Positions 19,136 to 28,767 of a DNA stretch of 35,373 nucleotides are shown here, one piece after another. Made by a program: the position numbers and the translations under genes. Origin of the DNA: Thermococcus sp. (lineage in GTDB: Archaea > Methanobacteriota_B > Thermococci > Thermococcales > Thermococcaceae); assembly GCF_026991495.1 (NCBI RefSeq), contig NZ_JALXBJ010000085.1, forward strand, positions 1 through 35,373. Reading direction: 5' to 3'. The notes under the pieces are model-generated. The model was not told the origin of the DNA and made no database searches. It was given only the letters and a program-made list of their open reading frames with translations. The first letter of the stretch is position 1; every line of letters begins with the position of its first letter.

Positions 19136-20002
19136 ATGGCCATCGTGGACGTTAGGGTTCTCGTTGAGGGAGCAAGTGACGTTGAGGTTGTCAGCAAAGC
19201 CCTGCAGGGGCTTGCCTTAGGGAGCGAGTACAACATAACGATCTCCTCCATAATCCCCACGACCAACGTTGAGATAGCGAAGAGCGCCGCCGCGGGGGCG
19301 GATTTGCTCATCATAGCAACCGACGCAGACAGGGTTGGCAGGGAGCTGGCTGAGAGGCTCTTCAACGAGCTGAGCCAGATGGTCGGGCACATAGAGAGGA
19401 TGAAGCTGCCCCTCGGCCACGACCTTGAGCACGTCGATGTGGAGCTCGTCAGGAAAGAGCTCAGGAACGCCCTCGTTAGGGCCGGGCTAAAAAGCCTTCA
19501 GGTTCTGCCGGAGTACATGGAGCTGAGAAAGCAGCTCTTAGACCTCAAAGGGGCCTACGATGGGCTGGAAAAGGAGTATCAGGAACTCGAAAAGGAGTAC
19601 ACCGAGCTCAGGGGCAAGTACGAGGAGACGAGGGTCGAGTACATGAGGCTCAAGCAGGAGAACGAGAGCCTCCAGGCCCTTCTTGAGAAGAGATCCAAGC
19701 CAGTTAAGATAGAAGACGCTTGGAGGGCGCTCTTCCCGGCCGAGCCCGTTCCCCCGGAGGGGTACCTGGCAATGGCCGTTGAGAAGCTCGGCCTCAGGGG
19801 AAAGATAATCGTGGGGCAGGGGTACATCTACTCGGAGGAGGAAGAGGCGATTGAAGAACTCCTCAAGACTGTCTACCTCGGCACCACCGTCGCCAAGGCC
19901 CTCAGGACGGAGCCTGAAAGTGGGGAAGCTGAAGAAACCATAGAAGAGCCCATTGAAGAAGAAGCACCGGCAGAGGAACCGGGAAAACCCGTTGAAACCT
20001 GA
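19136..20002 (+). CDS. Toprim-domain protein with coiled coil and acidic tail, upstream of xerA
   Basis: The 288-residue protein has a small N-terminal Toprim fold: [20 protein letters not shown] supplies the conserved Glu, and [20 protein letters not shown] the DxD-like acidic motif, as in DnaG, OLD and RecR-type proteins. A long coiled coil follows (about 125-190; [20 protein letters not shown] onward), then a compact domain ([20 protein letters not shown]) and a Glu/Pro-rich acidic tail. It probably binds metal and nucleic acid. ATG 19136 is preceded by GGTGAG and a TATA-like TTTTTTAAG. XerA begins only 14 bases after its stop, so the two are co-transcribed. Function unknown. Confidence 0.85.
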
Positions 20003-20016
20003 AGCACGGTGTCTGT

Positions 20017-20847
20017 ATGAACGGAACTGTTGAGGAGTTCGCCACGTACCTCGATCTTGAGGGGAAGAGCCCCAACACCGTAAGGATGTACTCCTATTAC
20101 ATCGAGAGGTACCTCAGGGAGGGCGGGGAACCTAACGCACGCTCCGCCTTAAGGTTCCTCGCCAAGCTGAGGAGGAAGGGCTACTCTAACAAGAGCCTGA
20201 ACCTCGTCGTCCAGGCCCTGAGGGCCTACTTCCGCTTTGAGGGCTTTGAAGAGGAGGCGGAGAAGCTCAAGCCCCCAAAGGTACCGAAGAGCCTTCCCAA
20301 AGCCCTCACAAGGGAAGAGGTCAGGAAGCTCCTCTCGGTCATCCCCCCCACAAAGACCAGGGATCGGCTCATAGTCTTCCTGCTCTACGGTGCTGGGCTC
20401 AGGGTGAGCGAGCTCTGCAACCTGAAGAAGTCCGATGTTGACTTCGAGAGGGGCCTGATCTTAGTCCGGTCTGGAAAGGGAGCCAAGGACAGGGTCGTGC
20501 CCCTCCCGGACGCTTTGGTGTCGGAGATAAGGAACTACCTGTCCAAGAGAGAGGACGAGAGCGAGTACCTGATCGTCGAGGACAGGCGCTCCGAGAAGGG
20601 CAGACTCTCCCCAAAGACCGTCTGGTACCTGCTCCGCAAGTACGGGAACAGGGCGGGCATCAGGGTCACCCCCCACATGCTGAGGCACAGCTTCGCCACG
20701 CACATGCTCGAAAAGGGGGTTGATATAAGGGCCATCCAGGAGCTCTTGGGGCATTCAAATCTCTCCACGACCCAGATTTACACAAAGATAACAGTTGAGC
20801 ACCTAAAAAAAGCACAGGAAAAGGCGAGACTCTTGGAATCGCTCTGA
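20017..20847 (+). CDS. xerA: tyrosine recombinase XerA
   Basis: Archaeal chromosome-dimer resolvase that recombines the dif site. The 276-residue protein has a SAM-like core-binding domain ([20 protein letters not shown], about 1-90) and a catalytic domain with the full tyrosine-recombinase set: R129 (GAGLRVSEL), K154 in SGKGAKDR, H220 and R223 ([12 protein letters not shown]), H246 ([10 protein letters not shown]) and nucleophile Y255 (IYTK). Length matches Pyrococcus XerA, so this is the housekeeping enzyme and not an integrase fragment. GGTG lies 8 bases before ATG 20017. It is the second gene after the Toprim protein. Its stop is 1 base from the convergent R15P isomerase gene. Confidence 0.95.
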
Positions 20848-23215: not shown

Positions 23216-23386
23216 GCTCGCCCCTTGGTGGGAGGGGTTAATAAGGGTGCCGATTGAAAGGGGGACAAAGACTGCATGGTTTTAGGAGATTCAATTCGTC
23301 GTTTTGATAAACAACAGGGCGAAAGAATATTAAGGCGCAGGATCTTCGGTTTTAGACAGATTTCTCAAACGTTTTGGGGTGATGCC

Positions 23387-24433
23387 ATGAAGTTCTACAT
23401 ATGCAGGGGAAAAGCCGAGCCAAAGCCGTTCAAGGTAGCTATCATCGGCGCCGGACCGGCCGGCCTTACCGCAGCGGGCTACCTTGCCTGTAAGGGCTAC
23501 GAGGTTCACGTCTATGAGAAGATGCCAGAAGGGGGAGGGATGGTTGCCTTTGCCATTCCGGAGACCAGGATACCGGTGAAAACCGTTAGAGACGGAGTTC
23601 GAGAACTGGAGAAGCTCGGAGTGAACTTCCACTTCAGGACGAAGGTAATCTACGACTCCCCAAGGGAGCTCGGCGACGAGTGGGCTGAGCACTTCGTTTC
23701 CCTTGAGAAGCTCTTAGGTGAGTTCGACGCGCTTCTCATAGCTACCGGTGCCTGGAAGCCGAGGAAGCTGAAGATCCCTGGTGCTGAGTTGCGCGGTGTA
23801 TTCGACGCCCTAACACTGCTCCATCACATAAAGATGGCCAGGATAGGCTACTACCCCTGGGACAGAATCCCGGAGGTCAAGGGAAGGCACGTCGTGGTAA
23901 TAGGTGCCGGCTACACGGCCGTTGACGTTGCCATTGAGGCGAGGCTCCTCGGGGCGGATAAGGTCACGATGGTCTACCGCCGCTCCATTGAGGACAGCTA
24001 CGCGAGGGCCGAGATAAGGAAGCTTATCAGCGAGGGGCTTGAGTTCATAGAGCATGCCTCGCCGGTGAGAGTTTTAGGAGAGAAAGGAGCCCAGGGCGTC
24101 GAGTTCGCGAGGACGGAGATAGTCGAGGGGAGCGTCGTGAGCACTGCCGAGCGCTTTACAGTTGATGCCGACCTCGTCGCCTACGCCATCGGACAGCTCC
24201 CGACGAGCCCGATAAGGGAGGTTGTCTGCGCCAACGAGAAAATCCTGAAGGAGGCTGGGATTTTCTTCGCCGGAGACGTAGTCGCCCCAAGGAACATAGG
24301 TACGGCAATGAGGGAAGGCAGAGCAAGGGCGAGGGAGATAGAAGAGTGGCTCCTCCGCAAAGCCCCAAGGAGGGTTTTTCCTGTTCCCGTTGCGGCGAGG
24401 CTGATAAGTTCGGTCACGAACGGGAAGTGCTGA
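23387..24433 (+). CDS. FAD/NAD(P)H-dependent oxidoreductase, glutamate synthase small chain-like
   Basis: Flavoprotein of the GltD/disulfide-reductase superfamily, 348 residues. An FAD Rossmann motif VAIIGAGPAGLTAA (17-30) is followed by EKMPEGGGMVAFAIPETRIP, typical of GltD-like proteins. A second NAD(P)H motif VVVIGAGYTAVDVA (169-182) with MVYRRS suggests NADPH, and the terminal FAD site FFAGDVV precedes NIGTAMREGR. The N-terminal iron-sulphur domain of true GltD is absent; only MKFYICRGKAEPKP precedes the FAD motif. ATG 23387 has GGGGTGAT upstream; 37 codons of upstream frame are rejected because they span the promoter. It stands alone, so its partner subunit is unknown. Confidence 0.9.
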   Translation: MKFYICRGKAEPKPFKVAIIGAGPAGLTAAGYLACKGYEVHVYEKMPEGGGMVAFAIPETRIPVKTVRDGVRELEKLGVNFHFRTKVIYDSPRELGDEWAEHFVSLEKLLGEFDALLIATGAWKPRKLKIPGAELRGVFDALTLLHHIKMARIGYYPWDRIPEVKGRHVVVIGAGYTAVDVAIEARLLGADKVTMVYRRSIEDSYARAEIRKLISEGLEFIEHASPVRVLGEKGAQGVEFARTEIVEGSVVSTAERFTVDADLVAYAIGQLPTSPIREVVCANEKILKEAGIFFAGDVVAPRNIGTAMREGRARAREIEEWLLRKAPRRVFPVPVAARLISSVTNGKC

Positions 24434-24438
24434 AGGTT

Positions 24439-25137
24439 TTAAGACACACGAAGGTTGCGGAATCTGAATGAAAAAGCGTAGAGGACATATAGTACAGCAG
24501 TCAGCATGGCTACCGTCAAAACCAGACCCCTCTTGCTCAACTCCAAGAGACCGCTACCCTCGGCGTACGCGGTATAAACAGGAGACAGAATGTACACCAA
24601 GTATGCCATGAAGCCCTTCACCGTGTTCCCAAGGCTTGCCTGGGCTTGGAGGAGGGCAAGCCCAGAGATGGGTAGGATGAAGAGGAAGACCATTGAGAGA
24701 ACGTAGGATCCGCTTTTGCTGCCTACGAGGGTCACCATTAGCAACGCACCCGAGTAGATTAATCCCATGGCAATCAACGCCCACATTACCCTGTCATACC
24801 CCCACACCAGCAGGAGGAGGGAGTTCACAGCCAAGAAAGGTACCTGGGACAGCAAAGCCGTTATAAACCTTCCGTAGGCGACATCCCTCCACCCAGCGAA
24901 GAGGGCTATCTCAAAAGCCGTAACCCGGTTTTCCTGAAACATCACGTTGAACACCAGAAAGAGGTACAGAGGCATCCCTAAGAACTGTATAAACTCAACT
25001 AAGGGGAGCTGATTCCTAGGGTAAAGGTAGTGGATGCCCGCCTCACTGAGAGCCAAAAAACCCAAGATCTCCCAGAAGAATATCGAACCCATTGCTTCCT
25101 TAGCGTAGGTTCTCACCGTTAGCTTTAACGTAGACAT
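24439..25137 (-). CDS. ABC-2-type transporter permease of the secreted-protein cassette
   Basis: The 232-residue integral membrane protein has six likely transmembrane helices (for example SIFFWEILGFLALSEAGIHY and SYVLSMVFLFILPISGLALL) and a short cytoplasmic N-terminus, typical of ABC-2 permeases. It overlaps the ATPase gene by 38 bp, so the two are translationally coupled and probably assemble as one exporter. ATG 25137 follows AGGTG; GTG 25146 overlaps it. It is the last gene of a four-gene unit that begins with a secreted protein. Base composition is more AT-rich than the flanking housekeeping genes. Export of the secreted product, self-immunity or lipid export are all possible. Confidence 0.8.
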   Translation of the reverse strand: MSTLKLTVRTYAKEAMGSIFFWEILGFLALSEAGIHYLYPRNQLPLVEFIQFLGMPLYLFLVFNVMFQENRVTAFEIALFAGWRDVAYGRFITALLSQVPFLAVNSLLLLVWGYDRVMWALIAMGLIYSGALLMVTLVGSKSGSYVLSMVFLFILPISGLALLQAQASLGNTVKGFMAYLVYILSPVYTAYAEGSGLLELSKRGLVLTVAMLTAVLYVLYAFSFRFRNLRVS

Positions 25138-25960
25138 ACCTAACACCTGACCTCTTGTACCCTAAGATCTTTCCCTCTTCCATAAGGCGTTTGAGAGTTT
25201 CCCCCTCCGCCCGCACCACAAGGATGTTGCCGAAATCACCTAAAACTCCCTCAAGGGGAGGGACAGTGCCGTTTATGAAGACATCGTAGACGTCTCCATC
25301 CTCTTGGAGCTCCCTTACCTTCCCATACCATATAACCCTTCCCTGCTCCAAAACGATAACTGAATCGGCCAGGAGCTCAACGTCCTCCGGGATGTGGGAT
25401 GTAAGGATATAACTGTGGAACCTCCTTCTTAGAACGCTTGAAACCCTTACATAGGAATGCAGATCCAGATGAACGAAAGGCTCGTCGAGCACCGGGATGC
25501 GGGAGCTGTCTGCAAGTGCACTAAATATCCAGAGGAGTTGCTCCTGACCCGATGAGAGCGAGCTCACCTTCTGCAATTCAAACTTGGACAGGCCAAGCTC
25601 ATCTGCAAGGGCAGAAGTGCCCTCAGGGTCGCCGTTTGCACGTCCGACGACCTTTACGAACTCACCCACCTTCATGGCATAGGGGAGGCGAGCCTTTTCA
25701 AAGGCAGGGTTGAAAGCCTTAACAACCCTTTCACGCTGCTTCCATGGGTTGATTCCGTTTATCATCACATCCCCTACCTTCGGACGCTGAAAGCCCATGA
25801 GGATTGAGAGCAGGGTAGTTTTTCCACTACCATTCTGTCCCACGATTCCTATCCTCTCCCCCCTGACCGATATGGACACGCCTTTAATGACAGGTTTTGA
25901 TGGAGTGTACTCAAACCACACATCCCTGAGGTTAAGTTCGATCCCCTTCCCCAACCTCAT
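25100..25960 (-). CDS. ABC transporter ATP-binding protein of the cassette
   Basis: Nucleotide-binding subunit of 286 residues. Walker A is GQNGSGKTT (41-49), the signature is the degenerate SSLSSGQEQ, Walker B is IPVLDEPFVHLD with catalytic Glu present, and the switch histidine is in LTSHIPEDVE. The last ~75 residues form an extra domain (GDVYDVFINGTVPPLEGVLG, then ILVVRAEGETLKRLMEEGKI) as in ABC-2 exporters. ATG 25960 follows GGGAGGG and overlaps the preceding membrane-protein stop by 4 bases; its 3' end overlaps the permease gene by 38 bp. It is coupled to both neighbours, so all three should act as one complex. Confidence 0.92.
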   Translation of the reverse strand: MRLGKGIELNLRDVWFEYTPSKPVIKGVSISVRGERIGIVGQNGSGKTTLLSILMGFQRPKVGDVMINGINPWKQRERVVKAFNPAFEKARLPYAMKVGEFVKVVGRANGDPEGTSALADELGLSKFELQKVSSLSSGQEQLLWIFSALADSSRIPVLDEPFVHLDLHSYVRVSSVLRRRFHSYILTSHIPEDVELLADSVIVLEQGRVIWYGKVRELQEDGDVYDVFINGTVPPLEGVLGDFGNILVVRAEGETLKRLMEEGKILGYKRSGVRYVYVKANGENLR

Positions 25961-26748
25961 CCCTCCCGGGATTCTATTATCATCACTATGAGGCCGATCA
26001 ACACAAGTGCCACATTTACAGGGAAGCTGTAGCCGATGCCGTACTTTATCCAGCCCCTCCAATCCTGGTCTGGTGCCGAATTCCCACCTCCAAAATACAT
26101 CTGGGCCACTAAGTCCTTCTCAACGGCACTCGTATTTACAGCGTAGAGGCTTGAAAGTTTTTCGCAGAGGGGCGTTATATTATACATCGAATTGAAGGCC
26201 GTGCAGGGGTGTGGAACCGAAACTGAGACTGCAACGTAGGTTCCATTATATCGGATATAATCATTACCGTAAATAGTGAAGTAAACGAAGGGATACCCAT
26301 AGGCCGGGCTTGGAGAGACGTGCCCCCTTTCAAGGAGGATTTTTCTGTCAATCCTACTCTTTATAAGCGACGCAATCAGTCCCTCCCCCTTAGAGAGATA
26401 CCACCCGTCCTTAACCTTTTTGATGGAGTCAGCGTAGAGGGGAAGTTCCGGGAGCCGGTCAATATTCACGCCGCCGTTACCAAAAAGCTTGTAGACACTG
26501 TATGAAACGTTGTATTCTCCCTCATGCAGGCAGGTCACGTTCAGTTCAAAGCCCAAGGACATTGACTTTCCCGACCCACTCGGGAACTGACCGACCACAC
26601 CGTAATACCTGAGCTGACTACCGGGGCCAAGGGCACCTTTGAACTCGGAAACCCTGTAGTGCTCCATGTAATAAGCTGAAACGGGGAGGAGCAGTATGAT
26701 AACCGCGAGAGCCATCAGGATGAGACCGAGTGTTTTTCCCCACTTCAT
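25957..26748 (-). CDS. bitopic membrane protein with large outer domain in the ABC cassette
   Basis: Not recognised by family. The 263 residues consist of a short basic start (MKWGKT), an N-terminal transmembrane helix (LGLILMALAVIILLLPVSAY), an outer domain of about 205 residues and a C-terminal helix (FPVNVALVLIGLIVMII) with a tiny cytoplasmic tail. The outer part carries N-glycosylation sequons NVT, NVS, NGT, NIT and NTS, and two cysteines that could pair. ATG 26748 is chosen because GAGAGGATG precedes it; ATG 26766 has no good site. Its position between a secreted protein and an ABC exporter fits a surface receptor, immunity or accessory role, which is inference. Its stop overlaps the ATPase start. 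Confidence 0.75.
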   Translation of the reverse strand: MKWGKTLGLILMALAVIILLLPVSAYYMEHYRVSEFKGALGPGSQLRYYGVVGQFPSGSGKSMSLGFELNVTCLHEGEYNVSYSVYKLFGNGGVNIDRLPELPLYADSIKKVKDGWYLSKGEGLIASLIKSRIDRKILLERGHVSPSPAYGYPFVYFTIYGNDYIRYNGTYVAVSVSVPHPCTAFNSMYNITPLCEKLSSLYAVNTSAVEKDLVAQMYFGGGNSAPDQDWRGWIKYGIGYSFPVNVALVLIGLIVMIIESREG

Positions 26749-26777
26749 ATCAGCATCCTCTCCCATTGTCGGGGCTC

Positions 26778-26788
26778 AAAAATAAAAA
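26778..26788 (-). terminator. T-run between the secreted protein gene and its ABC genes
   Basis: On the minus strand TTTTTATTTTT begins 6 bases after the secreted protein's stop codon. In archaea such T-runs terminate transcription partially. That would leave the first gene highly expressed and the three transporter genes at a lower level. Confidence 0.5.
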
Positions 26789-26794
26789 TGGGAA

Positions 26795-27274
26795 TCAAAC
26801 GTCCACGCTAACTTCAATGGGCGGCAACGGCAGGGACTCCCACTTAAGGCTCTTACCTTTAACGCCCCTGTACCAAGCGTAGGTGTGATCCCATGTGTGG
26901 TAGACAACCTTGTTGTAGACTATCCCACTGATAGAATTGAATGGCGAGTGGAGGGTGAACTGGCCGTAAAATGAGAGGGCCGTTGAAGACGGGTTGGTGC
27001 TCGTGTATCCCCAGGAACCATCGTCCGGCCAATGTCCACCGTGGTCAGTCTCGTGGAAGGTATCATAGTTGTCAAGCAGGAAAGTCCCATCTGGCTTCGT
27101 GGCGAAGGTCCATTCAGACTTTACCCATGCCATCGTCCATCCAAAGATGTTCTTGCCTTCAACCTTGACGCTTGCGTGGTTGTTGTAGGTGTAACCGGCG
27201 CTGGCGCTGGCTGCAGTCAAAAACAAAAAGAGCCCGAACACGAACAGGGCCAAGCTGACTTTCCGAACTCCCAT
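26795..27274 (-). CDS. small secreted protein, first gene of the ABC cassette
   Basis: Not recognised. The 159 residues start with a clear signal peptide: MGVRK, a hydrophobic core (VSLALFVFGLFLFLTA) and a small-residue ASASA site, leaving about 130 mature residues. The mature part lacks cysteine, is rich in Trp, Tyr and His (FGWTMAWVKSEWTF, FHETDHGGHW, VVYHTWDHTYAWYRG) and looks beta-rich. It ends in LPLPPIEVSVDV. ATG 27274 has a strong GGAGG site six bases upstream. The leader has a hairpin next to that site, and the promoter has a palindrome. A T-run after the stop separates it from three ABC-related genes. Size and context are bacteriocin-like, but no homology can be claimed. Confidence 0.75.
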   Translation of the reverse strand: MGVRKVSLALFVFGLFLFLTAASASAGYTYNNHASVKVEGKNIFGWTMAWVKSEWTFATKPDGTFLLDNYDTFHETDHGGHWPDDGSWGYTSTNPSSTALSFYGQFTLHSPFNSISGIVYNKVVYHTWDHTYAWYRGVKGKSLKWESLPLPPIEVSVDV

Positions 27275-27284
27275 ACTATCCTCC

Positions 27285-27300
27285 TGCCCCATAAGGGGCA
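27285..27300 (-). promoter_or_regulatory. leader hairpin next to the ribosome-binding site of the secreted protein gene
   Basis: TGCCCC-ATAA-GGGGCA (plus-strand order) is a perfect 6-bp stem with a 4-base loop in the leader, adjoining the GGAGG site. It could control translation or stabilise the message. Confidence 0.45.
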
Positions 27301-27329
27301 TACTCATTTACTTTTTTAGCAATTTAAAC

Positions 27330-27349
27330 TTTACGCCGTAAATTTATAG
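27330..27349 (-). promoter_or_regulatory. promoter and palindrome of the secreted protein gene
   Basis: TTTACG-C-CGTAAA (27330-27342) is a perfect 13-bp palindrome. On the minus strand it overlaps and immediately follows a TATA-like ACTATAAAT (27341-27349), so it sits between the TATA box and the transcription start. This is a likely operator. The surrounding 27308-27544 is AT-rich, and I see no gene in it. Confidence 0.5.
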
Positions 27350-27460
27350 TTCAACTTTAATAATTTACAAGAAATCTCAATATGATATTTTTAATCATTG
27401 AATAGGTTGCAATTTAGGGTTGTCATTTGTCATAACTTAAAGCACGCTTTTATCCCCTGA

Positions 27461-28767
<1,307 letters not shown>

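What the first reader, a model, noticed from the sequence alone, without database searches (positions are those of the whole stretch)
24439..27274. Secreted Trp/Tyr/His-rich protein with dedicated ABC and membrane genes: candidate new export/immunity or archaeocin cassette
Four minus-strand genes form a compact unit: a signal-peptide protein with a ~130-residue cysteine-free mature part, a two-helix membrane protein with a large sequon-rich outer domain, an ABC ATPase and an ABC-2 permease. The last three overlap each other. The secreted product recognises no family I know. The layout resembles secreted bacteriocin loci with an immunity exporter, and the block is AT-richer than its housekeeping neighbours, as expected of accessory DNA.
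Basis: partly seen in the sequence, partly recalled or inferred. Interest (0 to 1): 0.7.

Follow-up and report, generated by a model that had tools for sequence, protein, structure and literature searches.

The report
Thermococcus secreted-protein and exporter cassette
Some heat-loving Thermococcus archaea carry a small, swappable gene set for an exporter pump and a matching secreted protein of no known family, which behaves like a toxin-and-self-protection kit although its function is untested.

Summary
Four minus-strand genes (24439-27274) encode a Sec-type secreted protein (mature part 133 aa, no Cys), a two-helix membrane protein with a sequon-rich outer domain, an ABC ATPase and a permease. 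The exporter core (last three) was found only in Thermococcus: 14 of 115 phylum genomes, 20 copies. Seven copies (type A) lie at the dys locus; 39 of 39 other genomes readable there lack the cassette. A second, diverged cassette (type B, 13 copies) is in the same genome, with a secreted protein of no detectable relation to the first. Secreted genes are found only beside the core (11 of 11), while the core often stands without them, under purifying selection in both pairs tested; in type B a second membrane gene then takes their place. Between the two closest genomes, cassette plus most of dys form a tract of raised divergence, as if an allele had been swapped. Best reading: a bacteriocin-like effector with exporter-based protection (0.4); an envelope exporter with a secreted subunit is a close rival (0.35). 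Both fold predictions failed.

The parts
26798..27274 (-). Secreted protein (A-sec), 159 aa; signal peptide about 1-26 (by eye), mature 133 aa
   Evidence: clear relatives in 3 of 94 family genomes, itself included; fold model failed
25957..26766 (-). Two-helix membrane protein with sequon-rich outer domain (269 aa)
25100..25960 (-). ABC ATPase of the exporter, catalytic motifs present
24439..25137 (-). ABC-2-like permease, 232 aa, no Pfam or NCBIfam permease match
27275..27544 (.). AT-rich divergent intergenic region (GC 0.333) between the cassette and dys, with the ribosome-binding site of the secreted gene
24300..28250 (.). Tract of raised divergence between G000 and G051 covering the cassette and most of dys (0.84-0.94 identity per 250-base bin, against mostly 0.94-0.98 outside)
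27545..28561 (+). Flanking gene, deoxyhypusine synthase (name recalled), the neighbour of type A cassettes
23276..24433 (+). Flanking gene, FAD oxidoreductase (gltD-like, name recalled), on the other side of the insertion site

Best explanation
A laterally exchanged accessory cassette of Thermococcus that works like a Sec-secreted bacteriocin locus with exporter-based self-protection. The secreted protein leaves by the Sec route, matures by signal-peptide cleavage and acts outside, most likely on the envelope of related cells that lack the matching core. The ABC ATPase and permease form a pump, and the glycosylated two-helix membrane protein presents its outer domain to it; together they keep the producer, or a non-producing carrier, safe. 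Shown: gene order, linkage of secreted gene to core, cores without a secreted gene, constraint on such cores, presence and absence at one site. Inferred: secretion, glycosylation, pump direction, toxicity, immunity, lateral exchange.
For: Secreted genes were found only beside the core: 3 of 3 A-sec and 8 of 8 B-sec. The core stands without a secreted gene in 3 of 6 readable A copies (G021, G030, G042) and 4 of 12 readable B copies (G021, G033, G046, G051); in the two pairs tested such cores are under purifying selection (dN/dS 0.04-0.29). G056 has a stop codon inside its B-sec with the core genes open. In the 4 sec-less B copies two membrane genes stand in tandem, and G042 has a further A-like membrane gene behind its permease. 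Two secreted families without detectable sequence relation share one core. Patchy distribution, one insertion site for A, and a raised-divergence tract between G000 and G051. In the pneumococcal scb locus too, a subset of strains keeps the putative immunity genes but lacks a functional bacteriocin (PMC11796350, passages).
Against: The secreted gene is the most constrained of the four in the closest pair (dN/dS 0.013; Fisher against core p = 0.005), not an arms-race pattern. No toxin, bacteriocin or defence model matches it. No usable fold (pLDDT 43.6). No activity is known. Purifying selection, and both cassette types in 6 genomes, would also suit a physiological role. In G055 the core is damaged as well as the secreted gene, so loss is not always one-sided.
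Confidence: 0.4

Rival explanations
1. An envelope exporter: ATPase and permease export a lipid, glycan or small molecule, the membrane protein is the outer partner that receives it, and the secreted protein is an accessory subunit that binds or processes the cargo outside.
For: Very strong constraint on the secreted protein in the closest pair; constrained core also without it; both types together in 6 genomes; membrane and permease families in the same 14 genomes.
Against: A subunit should not be so often absent or broken while the core persists, and two secreted families without detectable relation serve related cores.
Confidence: 0.35
2. A detoxification or sensing system: the pump removes an outside stressor (metal, peptide, lipid-active compound) and the His/Trp/Tyr-rich secreted protein binds that stressor.
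For: Core kept without the secreted gene; accessory distribution; 7 His and 8 Trp in the mature A-sec.
Against: W+Y+H is only 11-12% in 4 of 7 B-sec; no metal-binding motif recognised by eye; no regulator gene in the window's cassette.
Confidence: 0.15
3. The secreted gene is an unrelated passenger that merely sits upstream of an ABC exporter.
For: 28 bp gap instead of overlap; absent from 7 of 18 readable cores.
Against: Same first-gene position at several sites and in two families; not found away from a core in 94 family genomes at the thresholds used.
Confidence: 0.05

Closest known systems
Lactococcin 972-type loci (lcn972-orf2-orf3; scbABC)
   Same: Sec-secreted bacteriocin gene followed by two genes thought to give ABC-type immunity and transport (PMC4055356 and PMC11796350, passages); a subset of strains keeps the putative immunity genes but lacks a functional bacteriocin.
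   Different: No match to an NCBIfam bacteriocin model; mature protein about twice as long as lactococcin 972 (its length recalled); separate ATPase and permease plus a two-helix membrane protein; archaeal.
LanFEG-type ABC immunity exporters (architecture recalled)
   Same: An ATPase with a short permease; P0003 hits TIGR03740 (lantibiotic protection ATPase) at 1.9e-19.
   Different: That hit is far below its cut-off (70.2 against 309.75 bits) and one of 195 ABC families matched, so it says only ABC ATPase; one permease here.
VARTIG modules of Thermococcales (PMC8416519; abstract, outline, section 10 and passages seen)
   Same: Variable, recently acquired surface or secreted modules of the same order of archaea.
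   Different: VARTIG is centred on large Ig-domain proteins; the words ABC transporter, permease and ATPase do not occur in its main text.

Membership tests
ABC exporter | ABC ATPase with Walker A, signature, Walker B and H-loop | tested here: met
   PF00005 E 1.5e-20; motifs read (names recalled)
ABC exporter | Permease belongs to a known ABC-2 permease family | tested here: inconclusive
   Several hydrophobic stretches, but no Pfam or NCBIfam permease model matched P0004 and none in Pfam matched two relatives
Lactococcin 972-type bacteriocin locus | Secreted protein matches a bacteriocin family model | tested here: not met
   A-sec: 0 hits in Pfam, NCBIfam, PADLOC. B-sec: only chance-level hits to unrelated families, E 0.089-0.19
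Lactococcin 972-type bacteriocin locus | Sec-type signal peptide and adjacent ABC genes in one probable operon | tested here: met
   no dedicated signal-peptide predictor was run, cleavage site by eye; co-transcription inferred from spacing
Bacteriocin/immunity cassette in general | Killing of related cells and protection by the cognate genes | not testable with these tools
   needs supernatant and knock-out assays
Bacteriocin/immunity cassette in general | Immunity part found without effector, effector not without immunity part | tested here: met
   11 of 11 secreted genes beside a core (the G055 core is itself broken); sec-less cores in 3 of 6 readable A and 4 of 12 readable B copies
VARTIG | Upstream large hypervariable Ig-domain protein (arCOG07710) | tested here: not met
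   None of the four genes is large, and none matches an Ig model in Pfam

The most novel reading that the evidence does not exclude
The first protein bacteriocin system of Thermococcales: interchangeable secreted effectors on one conserved, exporter-based immunity core, with non-producing carriers that stack membrane genes in the effector's place.
Probability: 0.3. Interest if true: 0.75.

Novelty: new variant of a known kind. Interest (0 to 1): 0.5.

Why it matters
Biological conflict in archaea is poorly characterised (abstract of PMC8416519). If the cassette is an effector with exporter-based protection, it gives a compact, testable system in a genus with working genetics (recalled), and a heat-stable secreted protein family of unknown fold. 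If it is instead an envelope exporter, it still defines several protein families without any model in the libraries searched here.

Tried and rejected
Fold: single-sequence AlphaFold of the secreted protein gave pLDDT 43.6; the membrane protein with one relative gave 36.3. Both are too poor for a fold search, so none was run. The deeper alignments were not handed to the structure tool because its stated rule names only the window and loci of certain other tools.

Homology of A-sec with B-sec: by eye the middle parts look alike, but hhalign gave 2% probability, and two profile tests of my own gave 136 of 300 and 244 of 400 column shuffles at or above the observed score. Not claimed. Secreted against membrane proteins: no relation, only hydrophobic stretches aligned. 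Solved structures: the best hits to the A-sec profile are two antibody chains at E 0.44 and 0.60, taken as chance; none for B-sec or the permease; four for the membrane family at 0.22 or worse.

Mobile element origin: no match on PLSDB plasmids for A-sec, the A membrane protein or B-sec, none for A-sec in phage records, none confirmed in viral contigs for A-sec, B-sec or the A membrane protein.

Wider distribution: the one scan of genome contigs, with B-sec, confirmed a single locus, a Thermococcus MAG. It did not return most of the carriers known from the genome search, so it cannot prove absence elsewhere. Rows dropped: one search counts 4 of 94 genomes, the fourth (G004, E 0.008, 50 residues, two stops) dropped as chance; the same hit and G019, G033 and G093 at E 0.01-0.06 (tally 7 of 115) dropped likewise. 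Beyond the phylum nothing was searched genome by genome.

A single-gene tree (SDR, 46 rows) scattered the A carriers over the genus, but 15 of 43 inner branches are starred, so it is only a hint of lateral movement.

Full report
What is there. Four minus-strand genes fill 24439-27274 between dys (27545-28561, +) and an FAD oxidoreductase (23276-24433, +). The secreted protein has 159 residues with an N-terminal hydrophobic stretch and a likely ASA|GY cleavage (by eye), and no cysteine in the 133-residue mature part. The second protein has two hydrophobic stretches at its ends and an outer domain rich in N-x-S/T (5 against 1.25 in shuffles). The third is an ABC ATPase with its motifs, the fourth a polytopic permease without a family model. 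Membrane and ATPase genes overlap by 4 nt, ATPase and permease by 38 nt; the secreted gene ends 28 bp before the membrane gene. GC is 0.50-0.53 against 0.556-0.594 in the neighbours.

A family of cassettes. The membrane family was found in 14 of 115 genomes of the phylum, all of one genus. The permease family was found in the same 14, with 20 copies. They fall into type A (7 copies: G000, G051, G055, G021, G030, G042, G064) and type B (13 copies: G000, G015, G021, G033, G042, G046, G048, G051, G055, G056, G058, G060, G064). Membrane proteins of A and B are homologous (hhalign 99.6%). Six genomes carry both types; among 61 genus genomes that overlap has a hypergeometric p of 0.0002, not corrected for kinship.

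The secreted genes. A-sec was found in 3 of 94 family genomes (G000, G051 99%, G055 47%, one weak fourth hit dropped), B-sec in 8 of 94. All 11 stand directly upstream of a membrane gene of the core. A-sec and B-sec cannot be linked by sequence. Without a secreted gene stand the A cores of G021, G030 and G042 and the B cores of G021, G033, G046 and G051. In these four B copies two membrane genes stand in tandem, whereas the eight B copies with a secreted gene have one (in G055 it is split over two reading frames). For G051 the two membrane genes lie on contigs C11 and C12, which overlap by 151 identical bases. Both G064 copies end at a contig edge before that position and were left out, so n is 6 for A and 12 for B. 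In G055 the A-sec frame is broken between signal peptide and mature part and its A membrane gene is split; in G056 B-sec holds an in-frame TGA with the core open. These are draft genomes, so sequencing error cannot be excluded.

The site. I fetched the dys region of 40 of the 54 genus genomes without type A. One (G056) ends at the contig edge; in 39 of 39 the cassette was not found (tblastn, E 1e-5), and dys is followed by the oxidoreductase (21), a remnant of it (1, G072) or the next gene, an SDR (17). In 3 of the 39 (G028, G059, G067) one other gene, OsmC-like by recall, lies between; a similar gene is beside the cassette in G042. Six of the 7 type A copies lie beside dys; the seventh, G064, is on a short contig beside the SDR gene. 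Type B sits beside a GAPDH-like gene in several genomes, but beside an acyl-CoA synthetase-like gene in G021 and G033 and a FeoB-like gene in G046 (names recalled), so it stands at several places.

Evolution. Between G000 and G051 the cassette genes and dys have dS 0.30-0.43, against 0.06-0.23 for the other ORFs compared in that region and 0.07-0.13 for the B core of the same two genomes. Nucleotide identity falls from mostly 0.94-0.98 to 0.84-0.94 between about 24.3 and 28.25 kb; a second, smaller dip (0.89-0.91) lies at 19.75-20.25 kb. The simplest reading is replacement of the cassette allele by recombination in one lineage. Within it the secreted protein differs at 2 of 159 residues (2 replacement and 33 silent one-change codons) against 55 and 154 for the other three genes (Fisher p = 0.005; dN/dS 0.013 against 0.11-0.14). 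For B, G048 against G058 gives 0.085 for the secreted gene and 0.10-0.14 for the core; G056 against G060, with the broken gene, gives 0.55 against 0.05-0.17. The three more distant B pairs give no clear difference and saturated dS. Cores without secreted genes remain constrained in the two pairs tested (0.04-0.29, with dS near or above 1 in one pair). In G055 an A-sec at 47% identity stands with membrane and permease proteins at 38-39%, and G042 keeps an extra membrane gene 46% identical to P0002 beside a different core, so parts seem to be mixed between cassettes.

What it probably does. A protein with its own signal peptide does not need the pump for export, so the pump more likely acts on something else, or back on the secreted protein. 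[quoted passage not shown] The strong constraint on the secreted protein fits an envelope exporter with a secreted subunit about as well. I put 0.4 on the first and 0.35 on the second. Secretion, glycosylation, pump direction, toxicity and immunity are inferred.

Known or new. No model in Pfam, NCBIfam, PHROGs or PADLOC and no solved structure matches the secreted proteins, the membrane protein or the permease beyond chance (the B membrane and permease proteins were not run against NCBIfam or PHROGs). Six literature searches listed no paper that I could recognise from title and abstract as describing it; only open-licence papers are held, and of these I looked into four (PMC8416519, PMC6393860, PMC4055356, PMC11796350) by passages or single sections. 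I file it as a new variant of a known kind: an ABC exporter cassette with a secreted partner, working like, but not shown to be, a bacteriocin locus.

Noticed in passing
L110 (G028), L130 (G059), L131 (G067) and L046:7853-8320 (G042): An OsmC-like gene (name recalled) of about 155 aa lies at the same dys intergenic site in four genomes, once together with the cassette, so this site may be an insertion hot spot.
   Followed up: partly
window 23276-24433 and the loci: The FAD oxidoreductase beside dys is itself patchy: found in 21 of 39 readable cassette-free Thermococcus genomes, a remnant in 1 (G072), not found in 17.
   Followed up: partly
window 20017-20847: XerC/D-like recombinase gene (name recalled) about 3.6 kb from the cassette; also in G051, probably chromosomal rather than a mobility gene.
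   Followed up: no
L052:6095-6457 (G000:C25): Small protein of 120 aa next to the B cassette, also beside B cassettes in G015, G042 and G051, without a Pfam match above chance.
   Followed up: no
window 19750-20249: A second, smaller dip of identity between G000 and G051 (0.89-0.91) around the start of the recombinase gene.
   Followed up: no
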